NCBI GenBank assembly: GCA_037178625.1
Contig: CM074143.1
Coordinates: 930,001-994,000 of the forward strand
DNA length: 64,000 bases
Direction of reading: 5' to 3'
DNA from: Skeletonema tropicum
Taxonomy: Eukaryota; Bacillariophyta; Thalassiosirophyceae; Thalassiosirales; Thalassiosiraceae
In this document: one piece after another, positions 42,556-64,000 of the stretch
Position numbering within the stretch: position 1 is the stretch's first letter
Layout of the letters: each line of letters opens with the position of its first letter
Notes under the pieces: generated by a model
What the model saw: only the letters and a program-made list of their open reading frames with translations
What the model was told of the DNA's origin: nothing
Database searches by the model: none
Translations under genes and position numbers: made by a program

Positions 42556-43534
42556 AGGAGTTGAGATCTCTCCTCCTAAACGCTGAAGCGTCTGAAACCA
42601 GGTGAGAGATCTGCAAATCTGCGACGCACGGTCAAGCATGGCAGCCTCAAGTTGATGATTACTTTTTCTTTCGTTTGGGTGGAACATGACGTTGGGTGGT
42701 AGCGGGGAGGGTTGATCTCCGGCAGCAAGCGCAGCTGCGTTCCTTTTCTTGTTCAGCAGCGAATGCGTCTGTATTACATGTGAGTCGGTTCTCGGATCCA
42801 ATTTACCCCAAATGCCTCCTAGAATGATCCGCTTGTTGTTTCTCCTCCTATCCTCTCGTTGCGCTCTCCTTGCATGTTGAGAACTTTCTCGGCATCGTTG
42901 CCTTCTTGGGGTACGTGGCTTTCTGGCAACCTGGCTTCCACTCTTACTCTTACGGCCCCTCGTACCTCGTTATTGCCACGCCTGCCCATCTTCGTGGAGT
43001 AGGTACCGTTAGTTTGTTCGACTGATCGACCAGAGCAGCTTGGCGACCCTCATTCTAGTTTCTTTGAGAAGAAAATTATCCAGATGTGGAAGAAAGCGGG
43101 GGTTTTGCGCCAAAATAGTCGCGCTGGCAATCGAAGAGGCCACAGATATGTATGACCATTGCGCTGATACTGATACTGATACTGATACTGTGCGCTTGTT
43201 GTCGATTAGGCGCCAAGAGACCTCTCATCGTGTTAGAATACCCATGCTACTTTTGAAATCCGTCCATTCCTCGCTCTATTCTCACACCAAGTATTTCATG
43301 TTATTTATGCTAACATACTGAAGCATCGATCGAAGGTAAATTTGATCCTCTCTTGTCGCCTCTGAGTCCCACAGTGTGACTCCTTGAGTATAGTGTCAGC
43401 GCGGAGAAGCAGCCAGAGCCAGTGGCAGGCCCATTTCTCGCCTGATCGGCACACATCTCCTTTTGACGGACTCCTCTATATCCCGTGTTACTACTCTAGC
43501 TAGTGTTTACGATCCGCACTCCTACCGGGACGTT

Positions 43535-50607: not shown

Positions 50608-53600
50608 TTACACAATATCAATTGTCGAAATTGATGACCTACTTATCATCAAGGTCGACCTGTGAGTGCTGTCAGACACCAGTTTCTCTGTTTCGGTATC
50701 AACTCTCTCAGCGGGACTTCCTTTCCAGTGCCCTGTTGATAGTGTTTCTCCGGGATTCAAAGGAGTCAAGGGAAGAAGTGTTACGTTCTCATCACTGATC
50801 TTCCCTTCAGGGAAAAACACAGATCTTGCATGAAGCGAGCACGAAGAGGGAATGACAACATTACCCAGTTTCAATCCACCATCATTGAACTTATGACACA
50901 GCAAGGTTGTCTCCTCTTCGATCCTACAATCATCGCCAATCTCTAATAAATCAGTCTCCAAAATTAGTACATTTGGATCAATCAATGTATTCTTCCCAAT
51001 CTTCGCTCCCATCAGCTTCCAAAACGTTGCTGTTACCCAGAATTCGTCCAACAGCATCAATGGGAATTCAGAAGCTTCGTGGACTATTGAATTGCATACG
51101 AGCCATTTAAACATGAGCAAACTATCACAAGCTATCAAACCCTTTGACTTGAGCTTACGGAAGTCCCCGATGACGACCCATTTGATGAGAAGGCACAAAG
51201 ATAGTAAGACTACTACCAACGCAATGATAGAGAAGGGAAATACGCCGAAGCTGATTCCAACCGCAATACTCTTGCTCCTTTCGAAGCCGCCTTCGCTGAT
51301 GAGGTAAAAAATAACACCATTCGCATAAAAAGCTAGTGCGATAAGGACGCGCACTAATAACTTGAAATACATTATCAAGAAGTTATGCAAAAGCAAGTGT
51401 GTCTATGATAGATGCGGAGAAAGTGAATTGTGAGATATTTGATTTCAACCAAACATGCACTCAAAGAATCAAGAGCTCTTACCGTTGGTTCATTTGTTAT
51501 CTCCATTTGTACATCTGACACCTTGCGACTAAGGGTAAGAGCGGGTGTTCCCAGCAATAAAGTGCTTTCATCATGACTGGTATCCTCGTTAACCGAAGTC
51601 ATAGGTCCCACCATCACTTTCTTTTCGATTGATGTGTCTGGAGAAATCACTGCTCTGTCAAGGATCATTGAGTGGTCCCCAATGTTCACATTTCCATAGC
51701 GAACGATCCCCCCGCAACGAAATGATGTATTACGCAATTGAACTCCATTTGCACCAAATGTACATCGACCGATTCTAGTGAGATCTGGCTCTTGGGGTAG
51801 AGGTGAAAAGCAGTTCTTGACATCCATCACAGCTCCAAAAGCAAATCTCGTAATTAGGTATGATATGACTGTACCCTCGGAACTCAGAATAGCTGAGTGA
51901 TACAAGCTCATTGCCGTATTGCGCCGTAAGAATGACATTGAATACACTCTCTCCCATCCAGGTTGCGCTCTTTTCCCTATCAGTAAATATCTTAATAGGC
52001 GCACAAACACTGCAATAAAGACTTCGCCGATGCTCATCCAGACAGGGTAGAGTACCATCGTGATCAAAAACGTTTTGGCATTGGAAGAAGCCAAGAATGA
52101 TATTAGAATCACGAGGAGAATATTCATGACTGCAGGAATGAAACTAATCAGTAGAAATAGTAAGTGCCAGCCGAAAGACACAAGTGTTCGGTTCTCTGCC
52201 GGTTCGCCACCACCCTCCGCTTGTTCTAGCTCGGTTTCGGTTACCTCATGCCCCATAACCTCGGTTGAATCTGCAACCTGATGCCGTTGCTGGACTAGGG
52301 ACAGACTTTTGATCCAACAAGAAGCTCCAATCTTGGCTCCTAGTCCAATGTGAGTATTTGGCCCAATCACCGTGTTGTCTCCCAAAACTATTTCATCTAC
52401 AGCAACGTCCCCGTTTTTCATTATCACAAGCGTTTCAAGCTTCGCACCGGCCTCAACAACTACATTGTTTCCAGTTGTGAGCATAAATGGCAGGCGTACA
52501 TCAGCATCCTCGAAAAAGTTGTTCTTGCCAAGGCTGCATCCGAAAGCATTGTAGAACCAAGTGTGGAATTTTGTTCCACGAAACATGAGATCAGCGCCCA
52601 TCCGCGACACAAACCAAAGCCTGTCAAACACGTACCAAAGTCCATAAGTGGCTGAGCTCCGCTTGATCGTGGTTGGGCCTTTCCCGATTGAATTGAAAAG
52701 TAGATAGCCACAAAACCTTGCTAGGATGACCAAACAGGAAAAGAAAACAAACCACGCAGCGATGTTTCCTAAGATGGCAATCGTAAACAACTGAAATTTT
52801 CCAAGGGAATATTCCAAGCTTTGCATGCTTCTGATCCTCCAACTCATTTCCAACGATGTGCTAAGCAAAATATTCGCTGGGAGAATGGCAATCCCACAAC
52901 TGACAAAGAGAACGAGTACAGCGATGGTCTTGATTAGTATTTTCAAGGCAGGTTTTTCGTCGCTGGACAGTTCTGACTTCATCATAGGCCATGAATGACT
53001 AGTACTATTGATGTCAACTGACGACCCATCAATAGTAGAAAGCCTGTTGTAACCTGCAGCCAATTTCCTTTCATTTTTGTACTCGTCTATTTTTTGACCA
53101 ATGTTCCTTGCCGTCTTTAACTCAATAAATTGCCTGACTGTAAACGAATCAATATCAAATTCTACGCGAATCTTCCCCACTGCCTGCATCACAAGCAAAG
53201 AATGGCCACCTAAATCCATGAAATCACAATCAATTCCAACAACATCGATTTGTAAGATGTCTTTAAAAAGCTTGCACATGAACTTTTGGGTCGAGGTTCT
53301 TGGAGGAATCAATCTTTGCATATCAGAAGCTCGAGAGTAACGAGGAAGAAAAGAGATGACTAGAGATTTCCGATCGATCTTGCCATTCAACGTCAAGGGA
53401 AACTCCTCCATTACCAATATCTTCCAAGGAACCATATAAGATGCCAGCGAGCAGTCCTCATTCTTCAAAGCTTCCATTAACGTTACAGCCAAGGCATCAT
53501 TCTGAGAATGATCTGCAATGCCCGAAGCCACAAATGCGACCAGCTTCTCTTCATAAACTACCACCAACGCACCACTAACTCCTCCTTGCTTCTCCAGCTC

Positions 53601-53781
53601 TGCTTGGATCTCACCGAGCTCAATACGATAACCACGGACCTTCACTTGATGATCGAAACGACCCAGATACACAATCTCTCCGTCCTTGTCCCACTTCACT
53701 CGGTCACCAGTCTTGTACACCCTACCGGGGCCGAATGGATTTGGGATGAATTTCTCGGCAGTGAGCTCTGGGCGGTTGTGG
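50608..53781 (-). CDS. NRPS 3' part: end of adenylation domain, carrier domain, membrane beta-helix terminal domain
   Basis: Downstream portion of the NRPS, cut off from the rest by the transposon at 53784-56189. Exons 53781-51483 and 51402-50608, with an 80 nt GTAAGA...TAG intron. It opens inside an adenylation domain (HNRPELTAEKF, YKTGDRVKWDKDGEIVYLGRF, VKVRGYRIELGEIQ, LTLNGKIDRK), followed by a carrier domain with DFMDLGGHSLLVMQ holding the phosphopantetheine Ser near 53205. The remainder has at least six membrane helices alternating with hexapeptide-repeat, left-handed beta-helix segments (IVLGDNTVIGPNTHIGLGAKIG, IGRCTFGANGVQL, and MGAKIGKNTLIDPNV). This is the NRPS terminal domain seen in epsilon-poly-lysine synthetase and related bacterial enzymes, where membrane-tethered acyltransferase-like units replace a thioesterase. 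As it stands this part has no start of its own and is probably not expressed alone. Confidence 0.82.
51403..51482 (-). other. Intron in the NRPS terminal domain
   Basis: Donor ACG|GTAAGA and acceptor CATAG|ACA, 80 nt. Its removal joins two open frames between a beta-helix segment and the next membrane helix. It shows that this bacterial-style domain has been processed as a eukaryotic gene. Confidence 0.75.
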
Positions 53782-53783
53782 TA

Positions 53784-56189
53784 CAGTCGTCGTACAGTTA
53801 TTTTGACACACTGTGTTCTGGCTCAGCGTGTCAAAATAACCGTACTTGTCAAAACATCCGTGTAGCAAGTAAATAGGCATCGGTACATAAGCTTAAATAC
53901 CAGTACATAGGTATGTACATAGGTTTCAGACAAAGGAGGAGACAAAGCAAGGTTGCTTACATATTTAGAAGTCTTCATGCTCCCACGTCAATTTCAGTTG
54001 TTCCAGAGTCAACGATAAATCTTTCACCAATTCATCAGATTTGCTGTTTAAGACCATAATCAATTCGACGTTACGAGAGCGTAGATGACCAAATGAATTG
54101 AAGAAGATATTGTACCGTGCATCTGCATCATCATCCTCGTCGTCATTCTCGTCGTCCTCCTCTGAACCCGCATTCTCATTCTCACGGAGTTTCTTGATTG
54201 CGTCTAATGCTGCCTCTGCAAGCAGCAATGGTGTCTCGGACGAATCTTTGATATGCTTTTTACATTGATCCAATAACCAATACGCATTGTCGTGCCGTGA
54301 GTAAGGCTTGGATGCAGCTTTCTGAACCCTAAAGTATGGCGCCACATTCGGTTGTCGCAACTTATTGCCTGCAAGCTTCTTCTCCAACTTTTTCGCTTCG
54401 AAAAGGCGACACTTTGACAAGAAAATGTTTGACAAATCACTTAAATCCTGCGCAAAGTCCTCACCAAAGACCTCAGCAAAGATTTCTTCCTCAAATCCGT
54501 CAACTTCGATGGAAAGTTGCTTCACTTGTGCTGCCATTTCCCTAAGTCGTTCTGCTTTAGGAGGCACTTTTGGCGCTTGCTGATCCTCTACCTCGCCTTC
54601 GGCGTCATCAATCTCATCATCCTCGTTCTGCAAATCAAGCAACAAATCACAGTCCTCCAGAAGTTCTGAAACTTCTTCCCTCTGCAACTCTCTGCAGTAA
54701 TCATTCTCCTCCATATTCATCCAATCACGCATCATCTTCTGGGCATCTTCTGGTGGTGTACTCTTCATGGTCATTACTAGTTCGTTAATCATGACATCGT
54801 AGTCCGACATGTTGTCCAGACAACGTTGCCGATCGTTGTTGTCTTTGGCAAACTGGTTCGCCAACTCGTAGAGTCGTTCCATTTCAGCATCATCGCCATC
54901 AGAAGTCTCACTATCATCTCCAGCCGCTGCAACGACTTCTGGCTCCATATTGACATCACCATCCGCATCAGTAGTCGTGGCAGCATCAGCAACTGCTTCA
55001 CTATCGACACTATCGTTTCCAGGAGCGATCGCAGATAAACTAGTGATATCGTCTCGACCAATCAGTTGAGACTTAATCCAACACTTCTTAACAGCCTCTG
55101 GCTTCACTTCTTCCCAAACCTTATAAGGCATCGTTTTATTGAGTTCATAGAACGCACTGATACCAATTTTTATTCGCAACAATGGATCGTTTTTCACGAT
55201 CCTATTTTTGTTGCCGCTATGATTTACCACGTTCAAGTATTCCGCTTTTTGCTGCTCCCAATAACTAAGATTTTGTCTGGAACACTTATATTTCCTCACA
55301 GCTGGCCCACCACCATATTTAGCTTTGTACTCCAATATCTCAAGCCTTTTTTGAATTGAATAATTTGTTCGCTCCTTCCTTGGCTTCGGCGGCTTCTCCT
55401 TTCTTTTTCCTCCAGAAGGGGGCTTTAGTTTTGTTTGCTTTGATTTCTTCTTCTTTGGTGCATCGGCAGTTAAGTCAACGACACCTCCTCCATTACTTTT
55501 CTTTGCAGCGGAAGCGGTAGAGGAAGGCAAAGGAGCGGCTGCCGCTGAAACATCTGCTGCATTTGCTGACGCTGAACTTCTCGCTGTGGTTTGGACCGAA
55601 GAGTTCGTGGTGGTGGTGGTGGCTGGAGTTTCGACGGGCATAGGTGAGGGTGCGGGTGCAGCTGCCGGTGTTGTTGTCAATGACCGGATTTGATGAACAC
55701 AGTTAAAACAAATTTCAAGTTGCGGACCTTTTTTCCCCGCTGGCTTAGGATTAGGTCGATCACCATCCTTTTTAGGCGCAATGACATCAAGGATATCTTT
55801 GTATTCTTCTTCGTTACCTCGCAAATCATCAAATTGGTGCCCACACGGCGCATGCTTCTGATGTCCGCAACGAAGACAAAAGTGTCTCGAATCCCTGCTG
55901 CCTTCAGGCGGCAAGGGGAGGCCTTCCATGTCGCAATAATCGCCCGCAGCACATCTAGCAGCACTCATTGTCGTTTACTTTATTAATTTGTCTCGCTGTA
56001 TTGTGTAAGTATTGTGTATGGTAATGTCATGGTCATGGTCATGGTGGTTTGTGTGGCTGAGCTGCCTCTTCTCCCTCCTCGGGAGAAGCGGGGAAGCCAG
56101 CGATAAGAGAAGGTAGTGTTCTCTGCTGCTGTGTCAAAATAACTGTAATGTCAAAATAAGCGTGTGTCAAAATAACCGTACGACGACTG
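53784..56189. mobile_element. Tc1/mariner/pogo-type transposon inserted in the NRPS gene, 2406 bp
   Basis: Terminal inverted repeats of 28 bp with one mismatch start CAGTCGTCGTAC at both ends. TA flanks the element on both sides (53782-53783 and 56190-56191), while the uninterrupted NRPS copies at 59192 and 62195 have a single TA at the equivalent position. That identifies the insertion site to the base. Subterminal copies of TGTCAAAATAA(C/G) occur inside each end (near 53826, 56131 and 56150). It contains one long minus-strand frame. The near-perfect ends and exact target duplication point to a recent insertion. Confidence 0.93.
53965..55968 (-). CDS. Pogo-element-encoded protein with HTH and Cys/His-rich N-terminus, no visible DDE core
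   Basis: A 667-residue single-exon protein inside the transposon. The N-terminus has a Cys/His cluster (CAAGDYCDMEG, then HFCLRCGHQKHAPCGHQ, and a later CFNCVHQ) that could bind zinc. A low-complexity Ala/Ser/Thr linker and a strong basic nuclear-localisation stretch (KKKKSKQTK) follow. NYSIQKRLEILEYKAKYGGG, then AVRKYKCSRQNLSYWEQQK, is a psq/CENP-B-type helix-turn-helix like that of pogo transposases. VWEEVKPEAVKKCWIKSQLI resembles the segment that closes a pogo DDE domain. Between the two, only about 55 residues remain, where a pogo DDE core would need roughly 200. The C-terminal half is acidic and helical. It may be an accessory DNA-binding protein or a deletion derivative needing a transposase in trans. 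Confidence 0.7.
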   Translation of the reverse strand: MSAARCAAGDYCDMEGLPLPPEGSRDSRHFCLRCGHQKHAPCGHQFDDLRGNEEEYKDILDVIAPKKDGDRPNPKPAGKKGPQLEICFNCVHQIRSLTTTPAAAPAPSPMPVETPATTTTTNSSVQTTARSSASANAADVSAAAAPLPSSTASAAKKSNGGGVVDLTADAPKKKKSKQTKLKPPSGGKRKEKPPKPRKERTNYSIQKRLEILEYKAKYGGGPAVRKYKCSRQNLSYWEQQKAEYLNVVNHSGNKNRIVKNDPLLRIKIGISAFYELNKTMPYKVWEEVKPEAVKKCWIKSQLIGRDDITSLSAIAPGNDSVDSEAVADAATTTDADGDVNMEPEVVAAAGDDSETSDGDDAEMERLYELANQFAKDNNDRQRCLDNMSDYDVMINELVMTMKSTPPEDAQKMMRDWMNMEENDYCRELQREEVSELLEDCDLLLDLQNEDDEIDDAEGEVEDQQAPKVPPKAERLREMAAQVKQLSIEVDGFEEEIFAEVFGEDFAQDLSDLSNIFLSKCRLFEAKKLEKKLAGNKLRQPNVAPYFRVQKAASKPYSRHDNAYWLLDQCKKHIKDSSETPLLLAEAALDAIKKLRENENAGSEEDDENDDEDDDADARYNIFFNSFGHLRSRNVELIMVLNSKSDELVKDLSLTLEQLKLTWEHEDF

Positions 56190-59100
56190 TACCCGATACC
56201 CACACCTATTCCACCAACCCAAAGCTCACCAGACACGCCTGGAGGACAGAGTGTACCATCATCAGGATGCACCACATAACAGAGAGTGTTCGGAAGAGGA
56301 CGGCCGATTGTATCTGATCTGTTACCAGCCGTAGAAAAGATAGACGCTTCGGTAGGTCCATAGCCGTTGATGAAAGTGGCCACCCTTGATTCAAGACCTT
56401 GAATGCAAGCCTCCCCGCCAACAAGCATCACATTGATATTGTTCGTCTCGTCTTGAAGGAAAATGTCAGCCACAGAAGGTGTGCATATCAACATAGTGCA
56501 GCACTTCATATCCAAACTCAAAGCAAGACCATTGCCAAGTGTACCGAAGTATCCATAAACAAAGACATCAAAAATGACAGGAGCAGCGCATCCTACCACA
56601 TCCACTTGCGGTGTTCCATTGCTGAATAACATTTCGCCAGATTTGTGAAATATCATATTCACTGGCCCAATGTGGTCACATACCACGCCCTTTGGAACAC
56701 CTGTCGTTCCACTCGTGTAGATCATGTAAGCACAGTCTGAAGGCTTGACGAGACGCTCAAGCTCTGTTCCATCATGAGAGGTGTTCTCCACTGCTTCCTC
56801 CACAAGGACCTTCTCAAACCCTCCCTCAACCAGATCGACGTGCTCGCCCACAGTCACCAACAGCTTCATATCTGTATCCTCAGCAATGAACTTGATCCTC
56901 TCGGGCGGGAAAAGGACAGCATCCATCGGGACGTAAGCTGCACCAGACTTCAACACTCCCAGCACGGCCACATGCATCTCAAACGTCTTCTCCCCCATCA
57001 AAATGCCCACATAGGTGTTGGGCTTGGCACCACGTCGTTGCAGCTCCAATGCTAGCCTATGTGCTTGTGCATCAAGCTCTGCGTACGTCATCGTCTCGGT
57101 TCCGGATTTGTTCAACAAGGCGGTGGCATCAGGCCGCATCCTCGCTTGTTGCTCAACCATCTCATGAAGGCAGCAATCAATGATTTGGTCTTCGGGTCCA
57201 CGTGCCAACTGCAGCACTAGTTCTTTCTCGCATGGGAGGAGGTTGTCAATGAAATTTGGAGTTGAAGGCGATGATCGTGCTTGCGACTTTGAAGTCAAGA
57301 TTTGACTGATGATGTGTTGGAATCGGTCCTCGATGTCAGGCCAAGGTCCAATGCCGCTCTCGATGGTTATTTTAATGCTTCCATCTGCGCTGCTGCATTC
57401 GGTCCAATCCACAGTCAAATCGAACTTTGCTGTAGGTGCTGCATATCCGTTTTCTCGTTGTAGCTCTGGCAATGACTGCACCCTAGGAGCACTATCAGAA
57501 GCAGAAAAAGAAGCGGAGGTATCAATTACGCCGACATTGAATGCCAAACACAAATTTGTACCATACCCAGCGGCAGACACTAAGTCAAAGGGCGCAGTTG
57601 CCAATGGTAAGAATTGATTGATCCATCTATCATTGAGCTGCTTCAAGGTCTCCTTGTTACCTTCAGCGCCCTTCCCAAACGGAATAAGTACAGTATTCAC
57701 AAACATGCCCAAAGTGTCGCGGAAATACGATGGCCGTGAATCAAATGCTGTTCCAATAGTGAATGCTTCATGACTGTACGCACGCAATGACTTGTGCATG
57801 ACACCCAATGCCAATGAGAACAGTGATATTCTCTCCCTTCGGCAATGACCCTCAAGTGCTGCCCTGGTTGCACTATCCAAAATGATGCTGCTCTTGTAAT
57901 ATGAATTAGCAGACGCAAAATCAACCTCGAGCCTTGGTGGTGTATCTCCCAACAACTCTACATACTTCTCGACGGAAGCTTGCTGCTCCTCAACTACCTC
58001 AGGGAGGGCCTCGACCGCTGAATATTTCCTCATACTACAACTCTTTGTTGGCGATTTCACTACACCTGCGTTGATAGCTTCAAAAAGGATCTGCAAGGAC
58101 CTACCATCAGCAATGGAGTGGTGAATGTTGCCGTAGAGTAAATTACTCTTCCTGTCAACACCGAATCTACACAGAGGACCTGAGCCCATGTCAAAGGCAG
58201 AATACAAAAGACGTTGGATGTCGTCTGGAACAGCTCTTGCCAAATCCTCGACTAAAATCTTTACATCTTCGATTGCTTTTCCATTCGCAAAACGAGTATG
58301 TAGAATCGGTAGCGCATCAACCACAGTCTGTGTGTTTGTTAGCACATCAATATCCTCGTTGAACTGGACACAGAAAGGTATGTTGTACGTGGTCTGGTGT
58401 GGGTCTTGGAGCTGAATGAATACCATGCGCTGCTCCGTCCTTGTCAGCGCTGGGACTTCATCGAGGGAGGCAAAGATCTCTTTCTCTCTGGAGGAAGTAC
58501 TACATGAACATTGCAAATGTGTAAGCAGAGAAGCTGGTGTTGGATGAGCTGCGATGAAACGAACGTCACAGTCCAATGCAGCAGCAAGTGACATTGCAAG
58601 AATTGAGTGGCCGCCAAGATCATAGAAGTTGTCATTCATTCCAATGTCTTTGTCGGCACCGAGAACTGCTTGCCATTGCTCCACCATCTCCTTCTCTTCT
58701 TTCGTTGCCGGAGAGACATACTCTGTGTCAAAACCATACCCTTCGTTGAAAGTTTCTTCCAATCCAGCGAGTAGATATTTCCGATCGATCTTGCCATTCA
58801 ACGTCAAGGGAAACTCCTCCATTACCAATATAAGCGAAGGGACCATATAAGATGCCAGCGAGCAGTCCTCATTCTTCAAAGCTTCCATTAACGTTACAGC
58901 CAAGGCATCATTCTGAGAATTATCTGCAATGCCCGACGCCACAAATGCGACCAGCTTCTCTTCATAAACTACCACCAACGCACCACTAACTCCTCCTTGC
59001 TTCTCCAGCTCTGCTTGAATCTCACCGAGCTCAATACGATAACCACGGACCTTCACTTGATGATCGAAACGACCCAGATACACAATCTCTCCGTCCTTGT

Positions 59101-62100
59101 CCCACTTCACTCGGTCACCAGTCTTGTACACCCTACCGGGGCCGAATGGATTTGGGATGAATTTCTCGGCAGTGAGCTCTGGGCGGTTGTGGTACCCGAT
59201 ACCCACACCTATTCCACCAACCCAAAGCTCACCAGACACGCCTGGTGGACAGAGTAAACCATCATCAGGATGCACCACATAACAGAGAGTGTTTGGAAGA
59301 GGACGGCCGATTGTATCTGATCTGTTACCAGCCGTAGAAAAGATAGACACTTCGGTAGGTCCACAAATATTTATGAACGTGGCCACCTTGGATTCAAGAC
59401 CTTGAATGCAAGCCTCCCCGCCAACACACAACACATTGATATTGTTTGTCTGGTCTTGAAGGAAAATGTCGGCCACAGAAGGTGTGCACATCAACATGGT
59501 GCAGCACTTCATATCCAAACTCAAAGCAAGACCATTGCCAAGTGTACCGAAGTATCCATAAACAAAGAAGTCGAAAACGAACGGAGGTTTGCATCCTACC
59601 ACATCCACTTGCGGTGTTCCATTGCTGAATAACATTTCGCCAGATTTGTGAAATATCATATTCACTGGCCCAATGTGGTCACATACCACGCCCTTTGGAA
59701 CACCTGTCGTTCCACTCGTGTAGATCATGTAGGCACAGTCTGAAGGCTTGACGAGACGCTCAAGCTCTGTTCCATCATGAGAGGTGTTCTCCACTGCTTC
59801 CTCCACAAGGACCTTCTCAAACCCTCCCTCAACCAGATCGACGTGCTCGCCCACAGTCACCAACAGCTTCATATCTGTATCCTCAGCAATGAACTTGATC
59901 CTCTCGGGCGGGAAAAGGACAGCATCCATCGGGACGTAAGCTGCACCAGACTTCAACACTCCCAGCACGGCCACATGCATCTCAAACGTCTTCTCCCCCA
60001 TCAAAATGCCCACATAGGTGTTGGGCTTGGCACCACGTCGTTGCAGCTCCAATGCTAGCCTATGTGCTTGTGCATCAAGCTCTGCGTACGTCATCGTCTC
60101 GGTTCCGGATTTGTTCAACAAGGCGGTGGCATCAGGCCGCATCCTCGCTTGTTGCTCAACCATCTCATGAAGGCAGCAATCAATGATTTGGTCTTCGGGT
60201 CCACGTGCCAACTGCAGCACTAGTTCTTTCTCGCATGGGAGGAGGTTGTCAATGAAATTTGGAGTTGAAGGCGATGATCGTGCTTGCGACTTTGAAGTCA
60301 AGATTTGACTGATGATGTGTTGGAATCGGTCCTCGATGTCAGGCCAAGGTCCAATGCCGCTCTCGATGGTTATTTTAATGCTTCCATCTGCGCTGCTGCA
60401 TTCGGTCCAATCCACAGTCAAATCGAACTTTGCTGTAGGTGCTGCATATCCGTTTTCTCGTTGTAGCTCTGGCAATGACTGCACCCTAGGAGCACTATCA
60501 GAAGCAGAAAAAGAAGCGGAGGTATCAATTACGCCGACATTGAATGCCAAACACAAATTTGTACCATACCCAGCGGCAGACACTAAGTCAAAGGGCGCAG
60601 TTGCCAATGGTAAGAATTGATTGATCCATCTATCATTGAGCTGCTTCAAGGTCTCCTTGTTACCTTCAGCGCCCTTCCCAAACGGAATAAGTACAGTATT
60701 CACAAACATGCCCAAAGTGTCGCGGAAATACGATGGCCGTGAATCAAATGCTGTTCCAATAGTGAATGCTTCATGACTGTACGCACGCAATGACTTGTGC
60801 ATGACACCCAATGCCAATGAGAACAGTGATATTCTCTCCCTTCGGCAATGACCCTCAAGTGCTGCCCTGGTTGCACTATCCAAAATGATGCTGCTCTTGT
60901 AATATGAATTAGCAGACGCAAAATCAACCTCGAGCCTTGGTGGTGTATCTCCCAACAACTCTACATACTTCTCGACGGAAGCTTGCTGCTCCTCAACTAC
61001 CTCAGGGAGGGCCTCGACCGCTGAATATTTCCTCATACTACAACTCTTTGTTGGCGATTTCACTACACCTGCGTTGATAGCTTCAAAAAGGATCTGCAAG
61101 GACCTACCATCAGCAATGGAGTGGTGAATGTTGCCGTAGAGTAAATTACTCTTCCTGTCAACACCGAATCTACACAGAGGACCTGAGCCCATGTCAAAGG
61201 CAGAATACAAAAGACGTTGGATGTCGTCTGGAACAGCTCTTGCCAAATCCTCGACTAAAATCTTTACATCTTCGATTGCTTTTCCATTCGCAAAACGAGT
61301 ATGTAGAATCGGTAGCGCATCAACCACAGTCTGTGTGTTTGTTAGCACATCAATATCCTCGTTGAACTGGACACAGAAAGGTATGTTGTACGTGGTCTGG
61401 TGTGGGTCTTGGAGCTGAATGAATACCATGCGCTGCTCCGTCCTTGTCAGCGCTGGGACTTCATCGAGGGAGGCAAAGATCTCTTTCTCTCTGGAGGAAG
61501 TACTACATGAACATTGCAAATGTGTAAGCAGAGAAGCTGGTGTTGGATGAGCTGCGATGAAACGAACGTCACAGTCCAATGCAGCAGCAAGTGACATTGC
61601 AAGAATTGAGTGGCCGCCAAGATCATAGAAGTTGTCATTCATTCCAATGTCTTTGTCGGCACCGAGAACTGCTTGCCATTGCTCCACCATCTCCTTCTCT
61701 TCTTTCGTTGCCGGAGAGACATACTCTGTGTCAAAACCATACCCTTCGTTGAAAGTTTCTTCCAATCCAGCGAGTAGATATTTCCGATCGATCTTGCCAT
61801 TCAACGTCAAGGGAAACTCCTCCATTACCAATATAAGCGAAGGGACCATATAAGATGCCAGCGAGCAGTCCTCATTCTTCAAAGCTTCCATTAACGTTAC
61901 AGCCAAGGCATCATTCTGAGAATTATCTGCAATGCCCGACGCCACAAATGCGACCAGCTTCTCTTCATAAACTACCACCAACGCACCACTAACTCCTCCT
62001 TGCTTCTCCAGCTCTGCTTGGATCTCACCGAGCTCAATACGATAACCACGGACCTTCACTTGATGATCGAAACGACCCAGATACACAATCTCTCCGTCCT

Positions 62101-64000
62101 TGTCCCACTTCACTCGGTCACCAGTCTTGTACACCCTACCGGGGCCGAATGGATTTGGGATGAATTTCTCGGCAGTGAGCTCTGGGCGGTTGTGGTACCC
62201 GATACCCACACCTATTCCACCAACCCAAAGCTCACCAGACACGCCTGGTGGACAGAGTAAACCATCATCAGGATGCACCACATAACAGAGAGTGTTTGGA
62301 AGAGGACGGCCGATTGTATCTGATCTGTTACCAGCCGTAGAAAAGATAGACACTTCGGTAGGTCCACAAATATTTATGAACGTGGCCACCTTGGATTCAA
62401 GACCTTGAATGCAAGCCTCCCCGCCAACACACAACACATTGATATTGTTTGTCTGGTCTTGAAGGAAAATGTCGGCCACAGAAGGTGTGCACATCAACAT
62501 GGTGCAGCACTTCATATCCAAACTCAAAGCAAGACCATTGCCAAGTGTACCGAAGTATCCATAAACAAAGAAGTCGAAAACGAACGGAGGTTTGCATCCT
62601 ACCACATCCACTTGCGGTGTTCCATTGCTGAATAACATTTCGCCAGATTTGTGAAATATCATATTCACTGGCCCAATGTGGTCACATACCACGCCCTTTG
62701 GAACACCTGTCGTTCCACTCGTGTAGATCATGTAAGCACAGTCTGAAGGCTTGACGAGACGCTCAAGCTCTGTTCCATCATGAGAGGTGTTCTCCACTGC
62801 TTCCTCCACAAGGACCTTCTCAAACCCTCCCTCAACCAGATCGACGTGCTCGCCCACAGTCACCAACAGCTTCATATCTGTATCCTCAGCAATGAACTTG
62901 ATCCTCTCGGGCGGGAAAAGGACAGCATCCATCGGGACGTAAGCTGCACCAGACTTCAACACTCCCAGCACGGCCACATGCATCTCAAACGTCTTCTCCC
63001 CCATCAAAATGCCCACATAGGTGTTGGGCTTGGCACCACGTCGTTGCAGCTCCAATGCTAGCCTATGTGCTTGTGCATCAAGCTCTGCGTACGTCATCGT
63101 CTCGGTTCCGGATTTGTTCAACAAGGCGGTGGCATCAGGCCGCATCCTCGCTTGTTGCTCAACCATCTCATGAAGGCAGCAATCAATGATTTGGTCTTCG
63201 GGTCCACGTGCCAACTGCAGCACTAGTTCTTTCTCGCATGGGAGGAGGTTGTCAATGAAATTTGGAGTTGAAGGCGATGATCGTGCTTGCGACTTTGAAG
63301 TCAAGATTTGACTGATGATGTGCTGGAATCGGTCCTCGATGTCAGGCCAAGGTCCAATGCCACTCTCGAAGGATATTTCAATGCTTCCATCTGCGCTGCT
63401 GCATTCGGTCCACTCCACAGTCAAATCAAACATTGCTGTAGGTGCTGCATATCCATTTCCTTCTTGTAATTGTAACTTTGGCAACGGCTGCATCCTAGGA
63501 GCACTATCAGAAGCGGAGGTATCAATTACGCCGACATTGAATGCCAAACACAAATTTGTACCATACCCAGCAGCAGACACTAAGTCAAAGGGCGCAGTTG
63601 CCAATGGTAAAATGCAGTTGGTCCATCGATCATTGAGCTGCTTCAAGGTCTCCTTGTTACCTTCAGCGCCCTTCCCAAACGGAATGAGTACAGTATTCAC
63701 AAACATGCCCAAAGTGTCGCGGAAATACGATGGCCGTGAATCAAATGCTGTTCCAATAGTGAATGCTTCATGACTGTACGCACGCAATGACTTGTGCATG
63801 ACACCCAATGCCAATGAGAATAGAGAAATTTTCTCCTTTCGACAAAAACCCTCAAGTGCTGCCCTGGTTGCACTATCCAAAATGATGCTGCTCTTGTAAT
63901 ATGAATTAGCAGACGCAAAATCAACCTCGAGCCTTGGTGGTGTATCTCCCAACAACTCTACATACTTCTCGACGGAAGCTTGCTGCTCCTCAACTACCTC
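56039..64000 (-). CDS. Multimodular nonribosomal peptide synthetase (partial; 5' end outside window, 3' end cut by transposon)
   Basis: The frame is open from the right window edge to a stop at 56039. Module order, reading 5' to 3': partial condensation (C) domain to about 63250, adenylation (A) 63240-61750, carrier (T) with DLGGHS near 61610; then C 61490-60250 with the HHSIADG active site near 61115, A 60240-58750, T near 58610; then C 58490-57250 with HHSIADG near 58110, and the A domain up to the transposon at 56190. A-domain motifs are canonical: MIYTSGTTGVPKGVV, GPTE, YKTGDRV and LTLNGKIDRK. Modules are 1001 residues and nearly identical. Each A domain loads an amino acid as an aminoacyl-AMP onto the T domain; each C domain makes the peptide bond. 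The last 50 codons (from about 56190) are transposon sequence read through. The product is unknown. Confidence 0.9.
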   Translation of the reverse strand, partial: EVVEEQQASVEKYVELLGDTPPRLEVDFASANSYYKSSIILDSATRAALEGFCRKEKISLFSLALGVMHKSLRAYSHEAFTIGTAFDSRPSYFRDTLGMFVNTVLIPFGKGAEGNKETLKQLNDRWTNCILPLATAPFDLVSAAGYGTNLCLAFNVGVIDTSASDSAPRMQPLPKLQLQEGNGYAAPTAMFDLTVEWTECSSADGSIEISFESGIGPWPDIEDRFQHIISQILTSKSQARSSPSTPNFIDNLLPCEKELVLQLARGPEDQIIDCCLHEMVEQQARMRPDATALLNKSGTETMTYAELDAQAHRLALELQRRGAKPNTYVGILMGEKTFEMHVAVLGVLKSGAAYVPMDAVLFPPERIKFIAEDTDMKLLVTVGEHVDLVEGGFEKVLVEEAVENTSHDGTELERLVKPSDCAYMIYTSGTTGVPKGVVCDHIGPVNMIFHKSGEMLFSNGTPQVDVVGCKPPFVFDFFVYGYFGTLGNGLALSLDMKCCTMLMCTPSVADIFLQDQTNNINVLCVGGEACIQGLESKVATFINICGPTEVSIFSTAGNRSDTIGRPLPNTLCYVVHPDDGLLCPPGVSGELWVGGIGVGIGYHNRPELTAEKFIPNPFGPGRVYKTGDRVKWDKDGEIVYLGRFDHQVKVRGYRIELGEIQAELEKQGGVSGALVVVYEEKLVAFVASGIADNSQNDALAVTLMEALKNEDCSLASYMVPSLILVMEEFPLTLNGKIDRKYLLAGLEETFNEGYGFDTEYVSPATKEEKEMVEQWQAVLGADKDIGMNDNFYDLGGHSILAMSLAAALDCDVRFIAAHPTPASLLTHLQCSCSTSSREKEIFASLDEVPALTRTEQRMVFIQLQDPHQTTYNIPFCVQFNEDIDVLTNTQTVVDALPILHTRFANGKAIEDVKILVEDLARAVPDDIQRLLYSAFDMGSGPLCRFGVDRKSNLLYGNIHHSIADGRSLQILFEAINAGVVKSPTKSCSMRKYSAVEALPEVVEEQQASVEKYVELLGDTPPRLEVDFASANSYYKSSIILDSATRAALEGHCRRERISLFSLALGVMHKSLRAYSHEAFTIGTAFDSRPSYFRDTLGMFVNTVLIPFGKGAEGNKETLKQLNDRWINQFLPLATAPFDLVSAAGYGTNLCLAFNVGVIDTSASFSASDSAPRVQSLPELQRENGYAAPTAKFDLTVDWTECSSADGSIKITIESGIGPWPDIEDRFQHIISQILTSKSQARSSPSTPNFIDNLLPCEKELVLQLARGPEDQIIDCCLHEMVEQQARMRPDATALLNKSGTETMTYAELDAQAHRLALELQRRGAKPNTYVGILMGEKTFEMHVAVLGVLKSGAAYVPMDAVLFPPERIKFIAEDTDMKLLVTVGEHVDLVEGGFEKVLVEEAVENTSHDGTELERLVKPSDCAYMIYTSGTTGVPKGVVCDHIGPVNMIFHKSGEMLFSNGTPQVDVVGCKPPFVFDFFVYGYFGTLGNGLALSLDMKCCTMLMCTPSVADIFLQDQTNNINVLCVGGEACIQGLESKVATFINICGPTEVSIFSTAGNRSDTIGRPLPNTLCYVVHPDDGLLCPPGVSGELWVGGIGVGIGYHNRPELTAEKFIPNPFGPGRVYKTGDRVKWDKDGEIVYLGRFDHQVKVRGYRIELGEIQAELEKQGGVSGALVVVYEEKLVAFVASGIADNSQNDALAVTLMEALKNEDCSLASYMVPSLILVMEEFPLTLNGKIDRKYLLAGLEETFNEGYGFDTEYVSPATKEEKEMVEQWQAVLGADKDIGMNDNFYDLGGHSILAMSLAAALDCDVRFIAAHPTPASLLTHLQCSCSTSSREKEIFASLDEVPALTRTEQRMVFIQLQDPHQTTYNIPFCVQFNEDIDVLTNTQTVVDALPILHTRFANGKAIEDVKILVEDLARAVPDDIQRLLYSAFDMGSGPLCRFGVDRKSNLLYGNIHHSIADGRSLQILFEAINAGVVKSPTKSCSMRKYSAVEALPEVVEEQQASVEKYVELLGDTPPRLEVDFASANSYYKSSIILDSATRAALEGHCRRERISLFSLALGVMHKSLRAYSHEAFTIGTAFDSRPSYFRDTLGMFVNTVLIPFGKGAEGNKETLKQLNDRWINQFLPLATAPFDLVSAAGYGTNLCLAFNVGVIDTSASFSASDSAPRVQSLPELQRENGYAAPTAKFDLTVDWTECSSADGSIKITIESGIGPWPDIEDRFQHIISQILTSKSQARSSPSTPNFIDNLLPCEKELVLQLARGPEDQIIDCCLHEMVEQQARMRPDATALLNKSGTETMTYAELDAQAHRLALELQRRGAKPNTYVGILMGEKTFEMHVAVLGVLKSGAAYVPMDAVLFPPERIKFIAEDTDMKLLVTVGEHVDLVEGGFEKVLVEEAVENTSHDGTELERLVKPSDCAYMIYTSGTTGVPKGVVCDHIGPVNMIFHKSGEMLFSNGTPQVDVVGCAAPVIFDVFVYGYFGTLGNGLALSLDMKCCTMLICTPSVADIFLQDETNNINVMLVGGEACIQGLESRVATFINGYGPTEASIFSTAGNRSDTIGRPLPNTLCYVVHPDDGTLCPPGVSGELWVGGIGVGIGYSRRTVILTHAYFDITVILTQQQRTLPSLIAGFPASPEEGEEAAQPHKPP
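56191..64000. repeat. Tandem 3003 bp repeat: near-identical NRPS modules
   Basis: Units 56191-59193, 59194-62196 and 62197-64000 (partial) line up at an exact 3003 bp offset over most of their length. The second and first units are almost base-identical outside a ~400 bp patch (56191-56620). The third unit matches the second through A and T but diverges in the C domain (about 63325-63520 and 63610-63850, with a net 6 bp deletion). A partial further copy, 53370-53783, lies beyond the transposon. Confidence 0.92.

What the first reader, a model, noticed from the sequence alone, without database searches (positions are those of the whole stretch)
53782..56191. Recent pogo-type transposon splits an NRPS adenylation domain at a TA
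The element's 28 bp inverted repeats, its TA duplication, and three intact copies of the target sequence in neighbouring modules give a base-exact before/after picture of the insertion. It separates the last carrier domain and the terminal domain from the rest of the synthetase. Read-through adds about 50 transposon-derived codons before a stop at 56039. The host frame would be continuous if the element were cleanly absent, so this may be a polymorphic allele.
Basis: partly seen in the sequence, partly recalled or inferred. Interest (0 to 1): 0.9.

Follow-up and report, generated by a model that had tools for sequence, protein, structure and literature searches.

The report
Young transposon splits diatom peptide synthetase
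A very young 'jumping gene' that has lost its own cutting enzyme has landed inside a large peptide-making enzyme gene of a marine diatom and cut it in two, one of many fresh copies in that genome.

Summary
A 2,406-bp element (53784-56189, TA on both sides, 28-bp TIRs matching at 27) interrupts the fourth adenylation domain of a four-module NRPS. Contig lengths identify the genome as the diatom Skeletonema tropicum. The pogo call is right, but not from the window copy, whose 667-aa ORF has no DDE match. Relatives of 3.39-3.40 kb encode a 967-aa DD32D transposase (PF03184). The window copy is an in-frame 987-bp deletion that removes all three catalytic aspartates and an intron but keeps the HTH region: a non-autonomous derivative, inferred to be moved in trans. 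Of 39 TIR-paired copies, 37 have TA on both sides. The window copy equals two copies 71-80 kb away and shares a private base with them. Correction: two, not three, intact target sites lie in the window; the third is 1.2 kb beyond. No empty allele is in the assembly, but haplotigs were purged, so polymorphism stays open. Unexpected: paralogous NRPS loci are also broken, by an RT element (chr18) and an LTR-like pair (chr6), so the chr17 gene was probably the last complete one. A KP-type repressor role is possible, but in-frame deletions are not enriched (3 of 13).

The parts
53782..53783 (.). TA target-site duplication, left copy
   Evidence: 37 of 39 TIR-paired copies examined have TA on both sides
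53784..53811 (+). terminal inverted repeat (3' end of the element in coding sense), 28 bp
53824..53845 (.). subterminal copy of the TIR inner motif (TGTCAAAATAA at 53829), part of a 22-nt inverted repeat with the TIR
53965..55968 (-). 667-aa ORF with stop: N-terminal part and HTH region of a pogo transposase (residues 1-281) fused in frame to its C-terminal region (from residue 582); residues 282-581 with all three catalytic aspartates are missing
55126..55127 (-). deletion junction: 987 bp (900 coding + 87-bp putative intron) present in full-length relatives are absent between these bases
56130..56159 (.). two subterminal copies of the TGTCAAAATAA motif (56132, 56149)
56162..56189 (-). terminal inverted repeat (5' end in coding sense), 28 bp
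56190..56191 (.). TA target-site duplication, right copy
56192..64000 (-). upstream NRPS piece (continues to C17:997090): A-PCP-C-A-PCP-C-A-PCP-C-A up to about core A6 of the fourth A domain
   Evidence: core numbering recalled
56039..56191 (-). read-through tail of 50 codons ending in TGA
51375..53783 (-). downstream NRPS piece: rest of fourth A domain, carrier domain, Pls/PosA-like hexapeptide terminal region; first in-frame Met only at 53477

Best explanation
The feature is a non-autonomous, DDE-less derivative of a young pogo-superfamily transposon of Skeletonema tropicum, inserted at a TA in the last adenylation domain of a four-module NRPS. Shown: the family has full-length copies whose putative spliced product is a 967-aa DD32D transposase; the window copy lacks the catalytic core; the same derivative sits at a second, different site on the same chromosome. 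Inferred: an internal deletion arose (probably by interrupted gap repair after excision), the derivative kept its ends and so was moved in trans by transposase from full-length copies, and one such jump cut the NRPS between about core A6 and A7. The upstream product then ends after 50 element-encoded residues, and the last carrier and terminal domains are orphaned, so the assembly line should not work on this allele.
For: TIRs, TA duplication and copy number. Full-length relatives with PF03184 (4.3e-36) and a spliced 967-aa frame, identical in L012 and L011 and 2 residues different in L013; the other 3 of 6 tested full-length-like copies with a readable frame or splice site gave truncated frames, and one more lacked the acceptor (7 copies tried in all). 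Deletion of 987 bp read base by base. 100% identity over the element to L002 and L003 and a private C>T at reference position 511 in those three copies against C in 17 others with that context. Other deletion derivatives also occur at several sites with different flanks: 845 bp x5, 635 x4, 2053 x2, 1842 x2, 995 x2. Derivatives with filler DNA (L015, L018, L031) and 0-3 bp overlaps at junctions. Uninterrupted site in three sister modules. Break at 1AMU chain position 385/386.
Against: No read, transcript or transposition data. The two other copies of the 2406-bp derivative have near-identical flanks, so only two insertion events are seen for it. No Pfam HTH model matches the first 617 residues of the spliced protein; the HTH is inferred by alignment to P0025 and P0007. 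The intron is predicted from sequence alone. Assembly polishing could inflate identity between copies.
Confidence: 0.9

Rival explanations
1. The 667-aa DDE-less protein is a trans-acting repressor of the family, like the KP product of the Drosophila P element: it keeps the DNA-binding part and occupies transposase sites at the ends.
For: In-frame fusion without a stop; HTH region kept; TIR inner motif repeated subterminally. It meets the two structural criteria for P-element repressors given in PMC12393704 (passages).
Against: In-frame derivatives are not enriched: 3 of 13 distinct deletion structures that keep the ATG, about what 1/3 predicts. The most numerous derivatives have a 67-aa first ORF (845 bp) or no ATG (635 bp). 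No expression or binding data.
Confidence: 0.15
2. The insertion is heterozygous or strain-specific and an uninterrupted allele exists in the same species.
For: The insertion is young (0 differences over 2,406 bp to its sister copies); strain heterozygosity 0.73% and haplotigs purged (PMC11032307 passages).
Against: No second allele among the 125 contigs, though this is weak because of purging.
Confidence: 0.45
3. The gene was already dispensable; the insertion is one of several independent losses in a collapsing NRPS family.
For: chr18 paralog: insert with a 19-bp duplication and RVT_1 (30.3 bits, cut-off 29.6), plus in-frame stops. chr6 terminal-region copy: insert with 296-bp direct repeats, 1 mismatch, AGAAC on both sides. 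chr7 modules have no terminal-domain match.
Against: The chr17 pieces have no other stop or frameshift. Relatives are present in transcriptome sets: P0126 (Trieres chinensis) and P0123 (MMETSP, organism not shown).
Confidence: 0.5
4. Misassembly: an element placed wrongly among near-identical modules.
For: Modules share long 100% stretches.
Against: A TA duplication abutting TIRs on both sides, as in 37 of 39 copies, is not expected of a chimera; module 4 has private bases on both sides of the break (-100, -52, and 7 sites from +274 on).
Confidence: 0.03
5. The element is removed as an intron from the NRPS transcript.
For: A GT stands at the upstream junction, formed by host G and the TA; the nearest AG on the far side lies 31 nt before the end of the element with its TA.
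Against: No AG in the last 28 bases of the element, so removal would not be clean; the NRPS is otherwise open over 10.9 kb. Splicing was not modelled.
Confidence: 0.03

Closest known systems
pogo superfamily DNA transposons, as in Gao et al. 2020, PMC7386202 (passages seen)
   Same: TA duplication, TIR under 40 bp, DDE_1 (PF03184) transposase, DD32D within DD29-56D and within the ranges given there for Tigger, pogoR and Lemi, length within 1.2-5.2 kb
   Different: window copy has no DDE match; full-length product (967 aa) is near the top of the reported 300-977 aa range and has long flanking regions without Pfam matches; the family within pogo was not resolved here (no tree built)
Internally deleted P elements (KP) of Drosophila
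   Same: in-frame internal deletion keeps the DNA-binding part and loses catalysis; many deletion classes coexist with full-length copies
   Different: different transposase superfamily; repression untested; no enrichment of in-frame forms here
Multi-module NRPS with Pls/PosA-type terminal domain (TIGR02353)
   Same: A, PCP, C domains and a C-terminal hexapeptide-repeat region; TIGR02353 matched at 9.3e-30
   Different: 103.6 bits, far below that model's cut-off of 423.1; first recognised domain is A, four near-identical modules, in a diatom

Membership tests
pogo superfamily (element family) | TA target-site duplication | tested here: met
   37 of 39 TIR-paired copies; 10 of 88 TIR matches were not in these pairs and not tested
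pogo superfamily (element family) | short TIRs (type 1, up to 40 bp) | tested here: met
   28 bp, 27 matching
pogo superfamily (element family) | DDE_1 transposase with DD29-56D spacing | tested here: met
   full-length copy L012: PF03184 4.3e-36; D381, D490, D523, 32 residues between the last two (triad assigned by eye)
pogo superfamily (element family) | CENP-B / Tc5 type DNA-binding HTH | tested here: inconclusive
   no Pfam HTH hit in the first 617 residues of the spliced protein; 40% identity over 117 aa to P0025, whose CENP-B_N match (148-198) lies in the aligned part
pogo superfamily (the window copy itself) | encodes a DDE transposase | tested here: not met
   no PF03184 match; only two sub-threshold hits to unrelated families. 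The 987-bp deletion takes the three catalytic aspartates and all but the last 16 residues of the 185-residue DDE_1 match. It is a derivative, not an autonomous member
KP-type repressor | catalysis lost, DNA-binding region kept in frame | tested here: met
   (HTH by alignment only)
KP-type repressor | represses transposition in trans | not testable with these tools
   needs an assay
NRPS | A, PCP and C domains | tested here: met
Pls/PosA NRPS (TIGR02353) | terminal domain above the curated cut-off | tested here: not met
   103.6 of 423.1 bits

The most novel reading that the evidence does not exclude
A currently active pogo family in a diatom has bred a DDE-less, in-frame derivative whose 667-aa DNA-binding product damps the family (KP-like), and, lying in sense orientation behind an NRPS promoter, it is expressed from the gene it destroyed; its jump ended the last complete line of a four-module NRPS family that three unrelated transposon classes have broken in parallel.
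Probability: 0.08. Interest if true: 0.8.

Novelty: new member of a known kind. Interest (0 to 1): 0.5.

Why it matters
It gives a near-complete picture (full-length source copies, young derivatives, uninterrupted sister sites) of a possibly still active cut-and-paste transposon in a diatom. It also shows a multi-module NRPS in a diatom, apparently in the act of being lost. A genome-mining paper lists 0, 1 and 0 NRPS clusters for the three diatom genomes it covered (PMC7073580; diatom section and table lines seen). Strain differences in the insertion would be directly testable and would link a transposon jump to gain or loss of a peptide product.

Tried and rejected
Selection for in-frame derivatives: no signal. 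The 39 paired copies have 26 lengths. Thirteen deletion structures that keep the ATG were judged by whether the ORF reaches the native C-terminus: 2406, 1887, 1842 yes; 2806, 2053, 1628, 1186, 1056, 995, 986, 964, 845, 3302 no. P(3 or fewer) is 0.32 and P(3 or more) 0.86 under 1/3. Of the thirteen, 1056 and 986 carry a second small change, and the 1628 break starts in the intron, so its spliced frame is uncertain. Dropped before the count: full-length 3393 and 3403, and eleven structures with filler, several breaks or no ATG (6703, 3447, 3261, 3227, 2379, 1513, 878, 819, 802, 649, 635). The arithmetic frame list is superseded: it ignored 1-2 bp overlaps and so mislabelled 1887, 1842 and 964.

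TIR matches dropped: of 88 matches, 78 form the 39 pairs. Ten were left out of the pairing: C6:3732405, C16:958837, 962459, 981025 and 981205, C18:824864, C47:48640, C51:36000, and C19:629260 with C19:638550, which do form a 9.3-kb pair that I did not read through.

Local hopping: the two insertion events of the 2406-bp form lie about 71 kb apart, but the other multi-copy derivatives are on different chromosomes or contigs, so no general rule.

Gene conversion tied to the insertion: neither shown nor rejected. Module 4 is like module 3 in the C domain and like module 1 from about -1050 to at least -62 (all 20 informative sites from -304 to -62). Downstream it is like modules 2 and 3 from +177 on (18 of 19 informative sites, +258 being the exception). 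A switch therefore lies between -62 and +177, an interval that contains the insertion point. With one case this may be chance.

An 18S identification was asked for three times (RF01960) and never answered; the species came from contig lengths instead. One search failed on a wrong frame and was redone. One search was rejected for a two-letter term and redone. One search ended in a script error after printing results; its duplication length of 0 for chr18 was an off-by-one, corrected. A PDB search with the transposase piece found nothing. A bacterial promoter scan has no bearing on a diatom and is not used.

Full report
Source. The window is G000:C17:930001-994000 of a 78.39-Mb, 125-contig eukaryote. 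Contigs C18, C19 and C23 are 2,110,432, 2,081,782 and 1,558,474 bp. These equal StrChr18, StrChr19 and StrChr23 of the Skeletonema tropicum CNS00166 assembly (PMC11032307, passages and table lines seen). That C17 is StrChr17 follows from the numbering; its table line was not shown. The paper's total is 78.78 Mb, slightly more than G000. A window protein (diphthine-ammonia ligase) also has Skeletonema among its best named relatives, 85% to S. marinoi. The assembly is PacBio plus Hi-C, purged of haplotigs.

The element. Arms, TIRs and TA duplication are as described. The ORF is 667 aa from an ATG at 55968. Its Pfam scan gave only two sub-threshold hits to unrelated families. Relatives in the genome carry 987 bp more at the junction. 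That piece holds a putative 87-bp GT-AG intron and most of PF03184 DDE_1. The spliced product is 967 aa with D381, D490 and D523. L012 and L011 give the same protein; L013 differs at 2 residues; four other long copies tried gave truncated frames or lacked the acceptor. The deletion takes residues 282-581, so all three aspartates and all but the last 16 residues of the DDE_1 match at 413-597. The window protein aligns to the Skeletonema dohrnii transposase P0007 up to its residue 199 and again from residue 500.

The family. Of 88 TIR matches, 78 form 39 pairs, all of which I read; ten matches were left out (listed under Tried and rejected). 37 of 39 are flanked by TA on both sides and there are 31 distinct sequences. 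The two exceptions are altered at the last base or bases of one end. L012 and L013 differ at 2 of 3,393 positions. The window copy equals L002 and L003 over the element and shares with them one base found in none of 17 other copies that hold that context. L002 and L003 lie 8,155 bp apart in a probable tandem duplication: 1,283 bp of left flank and the element identical, right flank 98.0% over 1,089 bp. With the Phaeodactylum rate of 4.77e-10 per site per generation (PMC6604790, passages including the abstract), zero differences over 2,406 bp give an upper 95% bound of about 1.3 million generations. That borrows a rate from another diatom and ignores polishing and gene conversion.

The host gene. 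The NRPS reads A-PCP-(C-A-PCP)x3-terminal, with four modules of about 3.0 kb. Long stretches are identical between modules. In the A domain, module 4 has 0 differences to module 1 over 900 nt (-1050 to -150), while modules 2 and 3 form the other pair; the differences cluster 150-450 nt upstream of the break. By general knowledge of A domains that stretch holds pocket residues, so two specificities are likely; I did not test this. Affinity changes to modules 2 and 3 downstream, somewhere between -62 and +177, an interval that contains the insertion; whether the two events are linked is open. The break falls at 1AMU chain position 385/386. The rest of the A-domain core lies in the downstream piece, so this A domain should be inactive; the catalytic roles are recalled, not tested. 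Both pieces are otherwise open.

Paralogs. Condensation-domain matches occur in the genome on chr17 (3), chr18 (2) and chr7 (2) (by the tool's note, counts of large families are lower bounds). The chr18 locus has an insert of about 11.5 kb with a 19-bp duplication and an A-rich end, about 200 bp from the equivalent of the pogo site. A 3-kb sample from inside it is one open frame with RVT_1, just above its cut-off. The same locus has further stops. A chr6 copy of the terminal region is split by an insert of about 18 kb with 296-bp direct repeats, 1 mismatch, and AGAAC on both sides. A 3-kb sample from inside that insert gave no Pfam match, so 'LTR retrotransposon' rests on structure alone. The chr7 loci have no terminal-domain match and were not read. 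So the chr17 gene was probably the last complete line before the pogo insertion. This is inference from one assembly.

What is not known. No allele without the element was found, but purging makes that uninformative. The protein search with the downstream piece could not have returned an intact full-length synthetase, because only proteins of 0.55-1.75 times the query length are candidates. No expression data were available.

Literature. Four searches - diatom with nonribosomal peptide synthetase and genome (20 of 104 papers listed), pogo with diatom and transposon (15 of 19), Skeletonema with non-ribosomal peptide (10 of 27), NRPS with algal terms (10 of 36) - listed no paper whose title or abstract start names this element or this NRPS. 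The unlisted papers were not seen. A pogo survey reports the superfamily in stramenopiles (PMC7386202, passages), so the element is a new member of a known kind.

Noticed in passing
L049 (C18:795001-795700), L050, L057: Paralogous NRPS interrupted by an RT-bearing insert of about 11.5 kb with a 19-bp duplication, about 200 bp from the equivalent of the pogo site.
   Followed up: partly
L051, L052 (C6:1469801-1487900): Terminal-region paralog split by an insert flanked by 296-bp direct repeats (1 mismatch) with 5-bp duplication AGAAC.
   Followed up: partly
window 51375-64000 and L009:1-3090: Four near-identical NRPS modules in a diatom; module 4 is a mosaic: module-3-like C domain, module-1-like A domain up to at least 62 nt before the break, module-2/3-like from 177 nt after it.
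   Followed up: partly
C7:846510-857911: Two further NRPS module loci 7.8 kb apart without a terminal-domain match.
   Followed up: no
L002 and L003 (C17:1053831-1066992): Probable tandem duplication offset by 8,155 bp: left flank and element identical, right flank 2% different, as if converted.
   Followed up: partly
L015, L018, L031: Element derivatives with several hundred bp of filler DNA at a break; origin of the filler not traced.
   Followed up: no
C19:629260-638575 and C16:958837-981230: TIR matches spaced 9.3 kb or clustered without simple pairing; possibly nested or rearranged element copies.
   Followed up: no
L028 (C2:4495914-4496711): A more distant relative of the element protein (52% over residues 1-284).
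   Followed up: no
window 42570-42845: About 66% similarity to the edge of the chr18 RT-bearing insert; may be a related retroelement.
   Followed up: no
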